NCBI GenBank assembly: GCA_022568195.1
Contig: JADFFS010000016.1
Span: 1 to 38,026, forward strand
Length of the DNA: 38,026 bases
Origin: Chloroflexota bacterium
Lineage (GTDB): Bacteria > Chloroflexota > Dehalococcoidia > Lucifugimonadales > UBA3495
Direction: 5' to 3'
In this document: one piece after another, positions 28,421 through 29,353 of the stretch
Layout of the letters: each line of letters begins with the position of its first letter
Numbering within the stretch: the first letter of the stretch is position 1
Notes under the pieces: model-generated
What the model was told of the DNA's origin: nothing
Databases searched by the model: none
The model's input: only the letters and a program-made list of their open reading frames with translations
Translations under genes and position numbers: made by a program

Positions 28421-29353
28421 TCAGGTGCTTACCAGCTGGCCGTGCAGCCTCAATGCGCCCCCTTCCGGTATGAGTCCGGAAAACGTTTCGGGATGAATCA
28501 TCTCCGCCATAATCTCTAAACCAGCCACCAACCGGGGTCCCGAACGGCTGGTGAAGGCGCTGGCGTCGATAACGTAGACCCGGTTGTTCTGCACTGCGGG
28601 AAGTCCGTCCCAGCCCTCCAGAGCCGACACCACTGGTACATCCTGTAGGCCGCGTTTCACGTCGAAGCCGCAAGGCATGAATACGATTACATCGGGCTGG
28701 CTGGCAATCACGTCGGACCACTCCATTCGGGAAGACCCCGATTCCTTGTCTCCGATGCAGTTGACTCCCCCAGCCAGTTCCACCATCTCGGGCACCCAGT
28801 GGCCGCCACACATCAAGGGATCGACCCATTCCAGGTGCAACACCCGGGGCCTGGTGGAGGTTTTGGCGGCCCGCTCCGTCACCGAATCGATGCGGGCTTG
28901 CATCCGCTCCGTTATCTCCTGGGCCCGCTCTTCGGTACCGGTGGCCCGGCCCACCCGGCGAATGTCCTCCAACACGTCACCCAGGTACTGGGGGTCCAAC
29001 GAAACGACTTCGGGCTTTTTATCCAGGTTTATGCTGGCCTCGGCTACCTGCCGAGTGGAGATGGCTCAAACCTCACAAATGGCCTGGGTTAGCAGCAGGT
29101 CCGGCTTCGCCGCCGCCAGCACCTCTTGGTCTATATCGTAGATCCCCAAGCCCTGTTTGAGCCGCTCACCGATGACCTGGCTGATCTCGCCGCTGGTCGG
29201 CTCCGTGCCATCGAAAACGCTGCGAACCACAATGGGCTTGTTCTTGGCGTCCGCCGGATAATCGCACTCGAAGGTCACGCCGTGTAGCTGGCCGTCCAAG
29301 CCCAGCTGGTAGACGATTTCCGTGGCGCTGGGCAGAAATGAGCAAATCCGCAT
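28421..29353 (-). CDS. BtuF/FepB-like substrate-binding-fold protein, candidate selenoprotein (Sec96, CEVU motif)
   Basis: MRICSFLPSATEIVYQLGLDGQLHGVTFECDYPADA...LLLTQAICEV-[TGA 29068..29066]-AISTRQVAEASINLDKKPEVVSLDPQYLGDVLEDI... continuous frame; the track splits it into 29066-29353 and 28421-28999. Hairpin with GGT loop just downstream. Confidence 0.85.
29039..29055 (-). promoter_or_regulatory. putative bacterial SECIS hairpin (CEVU gene)
   Basis: mRNA CTCGGC-AGGTA-GCCGAG, perfect 6-bp stem, apical loop AGGUA, loop starts 16 nt after the TGA. Confidence 0.8.

What the first reader, a model, noticed from the sequence alone, without database searches (positions are those of the whole stretch)
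28421..29353. Candidate new selenoprotein: BtuF/FepB-like substrate-binding-fold protein with C-x-x-U (CEVU) motif
Seen directly: two track ORFs lie in one frame, separated only by TGA at 29068-29066. The peptide across it reads LLLTQAICEV-U-AISTRQVAEASINLDKKPEVVSLDP. Ten nt after the TGA is the hairpin CTCGGC-AGGTA-GCCGAG, with its loop 16 nt from the TGA and a GGU in the loop, matching the bacterial SECIS consensus. From recollection of COG0614 cobalamin/siderophore-binding-type homologs, this site carries CxVC, so Sec would replace the second Cys. The protein starts at the fold (MRICSFLPSATE) with no visible signal peptide, suggesting a cytosolic redox role rather than classical transport. 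I do not know of this family as a described selenoprotein.
Basis: partly seen in the sequence, partly recalled or inferred. Interest (0 to 1): 0.92.

Follow-up and report, generated by a model that had tools for sequence, protein, structure and literature searches.

The report
Selenocysteine-containing cytosolic BtuF-like protein
A marine SAR202-type bacterium makes a protein shaped like a vitamin-B12 catcher that stays inside the cell and carries the rare amino acid selenocysteine; the family was already listed as a predicted selenoprotein, but gene neighbours of its relatives suggest that it handles vitamin B12 inside the cell rather than importing it.

Summary
Of 125 distinct homologues, 55 have TGA and 70 have Cys (60 TGC, 10 TGT) at exactly this codon, and none has anything else. 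The downstream hairpin shows compensatory changes and locked synonymous sites, which Cys homologues lack. The genome has selA, selB, selC and a Sec-containing selD. Sec was gained once, in one lineage of SAR202-type Dehalococcoidia.

It is not a new selenoprotein family. 'Cobalamin-binding protein BtuF, cd01144, CxxU' is in the 2022 and 2026 catalogues. They give no function.

New here: the protein is unlikely to be a transport receptor. It has no signal peptide, and its genome has no detectable BtuC/FecCD-type permease. C30, C93, C/U96 and C228 are invariant. Cys relatives sit beside cob(I)alamin adenosyltransferase, cobyric acid synthase, a DUF71-B12 gene, BtuB-like receptors and cobalamin riboswitches.

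Best reading: a cytosolic corrinoid-handling or corrinoid-reducing protein with Sec in the ligand cleft. Sec, the cytosolic location and the B12 neighbourhood are shown; the chemistry is inferred.

The parts
28421..29353 (-). Sec-containing BtuF-fold protein, 310 aa, U96 (TGA read through); ends at TGA 28423-28421
   Evidence: Pfam Peripla_BP_2 1.2e-26; AlphaFold model pLDDT 92.7, pTM 0.90, nearest solved folds are heme- and B12-binding SBPs
29066..29068 (-). in-frame TGA decoded as selenocysteine 96 (C93-E-V-U96)
   Evidence: TGA in 55 and TGC/TGT in 70 of 125 distinct homologues at this codon, no other codon
29039..29055 (-). bacterial SECIS stem-loop CTCGGC-AGGTA-GCCGAG, loop 16 nt after TGA
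   Evidence: compensatory changes such as CTCAGC..GCTGAG and CGCGAC..GTCGCG; synonymous-site minimum of the gene; absent from Cys homologues
29351..29353 (-). start codon ATG, directly at the fold's first strand (MRICSFLPSATE); an in-frame stop lies just upstream, so no signal peptide
   Evidence: open extension of 1 codon; homologues likewise start at MRICSFLPSATE

Best explanation
The gene encodes a genuine selenoprotein: UGA 96 is decoded as Sec through the SECIS hairpin 10 nt downstream, SelB and tRNA-Sec (shown by comparison, not biochemically). The protein has the fold of class-III binding proteins (BtuF/heme type) but stays in the cytosol and does not feed an ABC importer. Together with C30, C93 and C228, Sec 96 sits in loops that by alignment to BtuF line or adjoin the ligand cleft (inferred). 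From the B12-gene neighbourhood of its Cys relatives, the most likely role is to bind a corrinoid inside the cell and use the Cys/Sec group to ligate or reduce its cobalt, or remove its upper ligand, before delivery to the cob(I)alamin adenosyltransferase (inferred).
For: Sec: 55 TGA / 70 Cys at one codon and nothing else; SECIS covariation and synonymous lock; selA, selB, selC and a Sec-type selD in the genome; one clean gain, SH-aLRT 99; SelB in 54 of 59 nearby genomes. Cytosolic, not transport: no signal peptide in the window gene, and homologues start at the same point; no FecCD permease found in G000 while 13 of 14 controls ring; the glutamates E72 and E202, invariant in secreted BtuFs and recalled as the BtuC contacts, are not kept; in 11 Dadabacteria/Deltaproteobacteria-type loci the Cys form shares an operon-like cluster with an ABC ATPase and a BtuC-like permease, and the three loci of this group read in detail have a separate secreted BtuF-like protein beside it. 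Corrinoid link: Cys form next to PduO-type adenosyltransferase (L111), CobQ plus cobalamin riboswitch (L084), riboswitch - BtuB-like receptor - DUF71 carrying the ENGEFH B12-subgroup motif (L092), the same riboswitch and receptor in L106, DUF71 (L098); adenosyltransferase present in G000.
Against: No B12 gene was seen beside the Sec forms themselves, which sit next to a LON-domain gene and, in some genomes, a Na/H exchanger. The ligand has not been shown; the nearest solved folds bind heme or siderophores as well as B12. The loop holding C93/U96 has the lowest confidence of the model's core (block mean pLDDT 74), and I could not measure Cys/Sec distances. The genome is 90% complete, so a permease could be missing.
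Confidence: 0.5

Rival explanations
1. A cytosolic soft-metal, metalloid or iron-sulfur protein: C30, C93, Sec/C96 and C228 form a four-ligand site in the cleft, and the corrinoid neighbourhood in some phyla is secondary.
For: All four Cys/Sec positions are invariant in the 122-125 homologues in which they are covered, with W186 and nearly E175 and H185; the fold family binds many metal complexes; stand-alone gene context in Chloroflexota.
Against: Repeated linkage to cobalamin genes and riboswitches in Vulcanimicrobiota, Methylomirabilota, Euryarchaeota and others.
Confidence: 0.25
2. A thiol/selenol oxidoreductase acting on proteins or small disulfides, with the binding-protein fold reused only as a scaffold.
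For: CxxU/CxxC motif; the catalogues assume redox roles for most uncharacterised selenoproteins; a gene that looks OsmC-like by eye lies upstream in 16 loci.
Against: Two further invariant Cys (30, 228), conserved residues W186, W248 and R274, and B12-gene linkage are not expected of a generic redoxin.
Confidence: 0.15
3. A classical periplasmic substrate-binding protein for B12 import (BtuF), as its domain annotation suggests.
For: Fold and family match; Cys relatives in Dadabacteria-type loci are in operon-like clusters with a BtuCD-like importer.
Against: No signal peptide; the importer clusters read in detail contain a separate secreted BtuF; G000 has no detectable FecCD permease; docking glutamates not kept.
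Confidence: 0.05
4. The TGA is a real stop, a sequencing error, a pseudogene, or a TGA=Trp code.
For: The hairpin alone does not beat shuffles.
Against: TGA conserved across one GTDB family and sister lineages with Cys as the only alternative; covarying SECIS; complete Sec machinery; Trp never seen at this column; the gene's own terminator is TGA.
Confidence: 0.01

Closest known systems
Predicted selenoprotein family 'Cobalamin-binding protein BtuF' (cd01144, motif CxxU; examples RUA21600.1, MDE0719563.1), PMC9312934 and PMC13188914
   Same: Same fold assignment and same CxxU motif with one Sec; very probably this family.
   Different: The catalogues list it only as a name and motif; no SECIS, distribution, location or function is given in the passages read. 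I could not open the accessions to check identity residue by residue.
E. coli BtuF (periplasmic B12-binding protein)
   Same: Fold (TM-score about 0.65/0.8); the signature R-(I/V)-x-S/T-x-x-P and the PDL strand that ends at W85 in BtuF align with RICSFLPSATE and PDLLLTQ.
   Different: About 21% identity; no signal peptide; four invariant Cys/Sec absent from BtuF; E72 and E202 not kept; no permease found in the genome.
CxVC homologues in Dadabacteria, Myxococcota, Vulcanimicrobiota, Nitrososphaerota and other Chloroflexota
   Same: Same protein family (about 37-53% identity), same four Cys, same start point.
   Different: Cys instead of Sec; no SECIS; several lie in B12 gene clusters.
SaoB / SaoX selenoprotein ABC binding subunits (Haft and Gwadz 2023, as listed in PMC13188914)
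   Same: Also predicted selenoproteins annotated as ABC binding proteins.
   Different: Different families and motifs (CUxxT, UxP) in the catalogue; not compared here by sequence.

Membership tests
Bacterial selenoprotein | In-frame TGA aligned with Cys in homologues | tested here: met
   55 TGA, 70 Cys, nothing else at residue 96 in 125 distinct homologues
Bacterial selenoprotein | SECIS stem-loop 16-37 nt after TGA with G in the first two loop positions (consensus recalled from the bSECIS literature) | tested here: met
   AGGT loop 16 nt after TGA, compensatory changes, synonymous lock
Bacterial selenoprotein | selA, selB, selC, selD in the genome | tested here: met
   SelD itself has Sec
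Bacterial selenoprotein | Sec physically present in the protein | not testable with these tools
   needs mass spectrometry or 75Se labelling
Catalogued 'Cobalamin-binding protein BtuF' selenoprotein family (cd01144, CxxU) | BtuF-type domain with CxxU | tested here: met
   Peripla_BP_2, BtuF fold, C93-E-V-U96; cd01144 itself was not searched and the accessions could not be opened
BtuF (periplasmic B12 receptor of BtuCD) | Signal peptide | tested here: not met
   in-frame stop just upstream of the start, protein begins at the fold
BtuF (periplasmic B12 receptor of BtuCD) | Partner FecCD/BtuC permease in the genome | tested here: not met
   none in G000, 13 of 14 controls positive; genome about 90% complete
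BtuF (periplasmic B12 receptor of BtuCD) | Docking glutamates E72 and E202 (role recalled from the BtuCDF literature) | tested here: not met
   columns variable: E in 17 of 43 and in 13 of 43, invariant in E. coli and secreted Dadabacteria-type BtuFs
BtuF (periplasmic B12 receptor of BtuCD) | Binds cobalamin | not testable with these tools
   needs binding assay
B12 metabolism gene | Genomic linkage to cobalamin genes or riboswitches | tested here: inconclusive
   met for Cys relatives; not seen for the Sec forms

The most novel reading that the evidence does not exclude
A cytosolic selenoenzyme or selenochaperone of B12 metabolism, made from a binding-protein fold that left the transport system, in which a Cys3-Sec site in the cleft binds or reduces cobalt in a corrinoid ahead of the adenosyltransferase. 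It would be a candidate for a corrinoid-reducing or upper-ligand-removing step and, to my knowledge, an unprecedented use of Sec in handling the corrinoid itself.
Probability: 0.3. Interest if true: 0.75.

Novelty: new member of a known kind. Interest (0 to 1): 0.48.

Why it matters
The Sec call is solid and the family is widespread in uncultured SAR202-type bacteria, but it has been only a line in two catalogues. The evidence here turns it into a testable hypothesis: a binding-protein fold reused inside the cell for B12 chemistry, with Sec replacing one of four invariant cysteines. Which protein reduces cob(II)/cob(III)alamin for adenosylation is, as far as I recall, unsettled in many bacteria and archaea, and the Cys forms beside adenosyltransferase and cobyric acid synthase can be expressed in E. 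coli and tested directly. It also warns that 'BtuF' annotations without a signal peptide should not be read as B12 import.

Tried and rejected
Rfam SECIS_1 search gave nothing, but its controls gave nothing either, so it is uninformative. Single-sequence folding of the hairpin is not significant. No Rfam match in the window. Literature searches for SAR202 with selenoprotein or selenocysteine found no report on this gene; Peng et al. 2016, cited by both catalogues, does not name BtuF or cobalamin in its main text and supplements could not be opened, so the original evidence for the listing was not seen. Haft and Tolstoy 2025 is not held; deep-Sep 2025 has no mention. I asked whether Sec arises repeatedly: one change suffices. 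I asked whether Sec form versus Cys form tracks SelB: it does not outside the lineage, since many SelB-bearing relatives keep Cys. A pseudogene and an alternative code were considered and rejected.

Full report
WHAT IS THERE. Window 28421-29353 (minus strand) is one frame of 310 codons, interrupted only by TGA at 29068-29066 (residue 96), with a plausible ribosome-binding site and an in-frame stop just upstream of the ATG. Ten nt after the TGA stands CTCGGC-AGGTA-GCCGAG.

IS IT SELENOCYSTEINE? Yes, on comparative evidence. I collected the homologues and looked at codon 96. In 125 distinct sequences it is TGA (55), TGC (60) or TGT (10) and never anything else. The hairpin alone folds no better than many shuffles (z -1.2), so on one sequence it would be weak. 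Across the TGA forms it is decisive. The loop begins AGGT in all, the four inner pairs are standard pairs in all 55, and there are paired changes: CTCAGC/GCTGAG in L018 and again in L139/L140, and CGCGAC/GTCGCG in L037. The matching codons are almost frozen at synonymous sites (CGG, CAG, GCC, GAG), while the V103 codon, whose third base is the last loop base, varies freely. Cys forms show neither. The genome carries selA (C186), selB (C135), tRNA-Sec (C53) and selD (C68), and its SelD has an in-frame TGA at the usual Sec site itself.

WHO HAS IT. The Sec form was found in one GTDB family of SAR202-type Dehalococcoidia and a few sister lineages of the same order, as one clade with SH-aLRT 99; the nearest outgroups are Cys forms of the same order. 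Many SelB-bearing genomes of the class keep Cys. G000 has a second Sec paralogue (C169:2131-3042, 65% identical, with its own SECIS) and a Cys paralogue (C102).

WHAT PROTEIN IT IS. Pfam gives Peripla_BP_2. The AlphaFold model is confident (pLDDT 92.7, pTM 0.90), and its nearest solved folds are class-III binding proteins for heme, B12 and siderophores, including E. coli and V. cholerae BtuF. Four Cys/Sec positions, C30, C93, C/U96 and C228, are invariant, with W186, W248 and R274, and E175 and H185 nearly so. By alignment with BtuF, C30 falls next to the position of Y50, and the CxxC/U loop follows the strand that ends at W85. I recall Y50 and W85 as B12-cleft residues; I did not test this.

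IT DOES NOT LOOK LIKE A TRANSPORT RECEPTOR. There is no signal peptide here, and homologues start at the same point. G000 has no FecCD-type permease detectable by Pfam, while 13 of 14 control genomes do; the genome is about 90% complete. The glutamates that I recall as BtuC contacts in BtuF (E72, E202) are invariant in secreted BtuFs but variable here. In Dadabacteria and Deltaproteobacteria-type genomes the Cys form sits in an operon-like cluster with an ABC ATPase and a BtuC-like permease, several with a TonB-dependent receptor upstream; the three loci read in detail (L091, L102, L116) also have a separate secreted BtuF-like protein. So the cytosolic protein is an extra, not the receptor.

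LINK TO B12. Cys relatives occur (i) immediately before a PduO-type cob(I)alamin adenosyltransferase in a euryarchaeal MAG (L111); (ii) immediately before cobyric acid synthase CobQ, with a cobalamin riboswitch just downstream, in Methylomirabilis (L084); (iii) downstream of a cobalamin riboswitch and a BtuB-like receptor in two Eremiobacterota (L092, L106), with a DUF71 gene between in L092 that carries ENGEFH, the motif that PMC3541065 assigns to its B12 subgroup; (iv) near two DUF71 genes in L098. G000 has its own adenosyltransferase. The Sec forms themselves are not next to B12 genes; their conserved neighbour is a convergent LON-substrate-binding-domain gene (50 of 51 placed loci), and in 19 loci a Na/H-exchanger gene lies upstream.

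HOW IT PROBABLY WORKS. Shown by comparison: Sec insertion, cytosolic start, single gain, B12 neighbourhood of Cys relatives. Inferred: a corrinoid is bound in the cleft between the lobes; a Cys/Sec group there ligates or reduces the cobalt, or removes the upper ligand, so that the product can be adenosylated. Sec would make a stronger reductant and a softer ligand than Cys (general chemistry, not tested). The main rival is a soft-metal or Fe-S site formed by the same four residues. A generic oxidoreductase is less likely and a transport receptor unlikely.

WHAT IS KNOWN. PMC9312934 (2022) and PMC13188914 (2026) list 'Cobalamin-binding protein BtuF', cd01144, CxxU, one Sec, with examples RUA21600.1 and MDE0719563.1, both citing Peng et al. 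2016. The main text of that paper does not discuss it. I could not open the accessions, but domain and motif agree. So the claim of a new selenoprotein family falls, while the function remains open.

VERDICT. A real selenoprotein and a new member of an already catalogued predicted family. The added value is strong comparative evidence for Sec, the argument that it is not a transport receptor, and a concrete, testable B12-processing hypothesis.

Noticed in passing
window 29069-29071 (codon 95): The codon just before the TGA is GTT in all 44 distinct TGA forms that have Val there, but GTC/GTG/GTA/GTT in Cys forms. The reason is unknown; perhaps context for UGA decoding.
   Followed up: partly
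window 27571-28254 (+): A stand-alone LON substrate-binding-domain gene lies tail to tail with this gene in 50 of 51 placed loci, Sec and Cys forms alike.
   Followed up: partly
G000:C169:2131-3042 (L134): A second Sec paralogue (CDI-U) with its own hairpin CCCGGC-AGGTG-GCCGAG; related copies in G005, G009, G010, G019 and G002.
   Followed up: partly
L139:3866-4543 and L140:2371-3048: In one sub-lineage a TENA/PqqC-like (iron-containing redox enzyme) gene lies directly upstream of the Sec gene on the same strand, 5 nt apart in L139.
   Followed up: partly
G000:C68:6280-7194 (L130): The genome's SelD is itself a predicted Sec protein (TGA at residue 11 of the matched stretch, AGUAGKLS).
   Followed up: yes
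L091, L093, L094, L096, L099, L101, L116 and similar: A lipoprotein-like protein of about 495 aa without Pfam or NCBIfam match (tested in L116) lies upstream of the CxVC gene in the B12-type import clusters of Dadabacteria-type genomes, in several of them behind a TonB-receptor barrel gene.
   Followed up: partly
window 33890-34819 and 34823-35530 (+): QueC followed by a radical SAM protein, probably a queuosine/preQ0 operon; ordinary.
   Followed up: no
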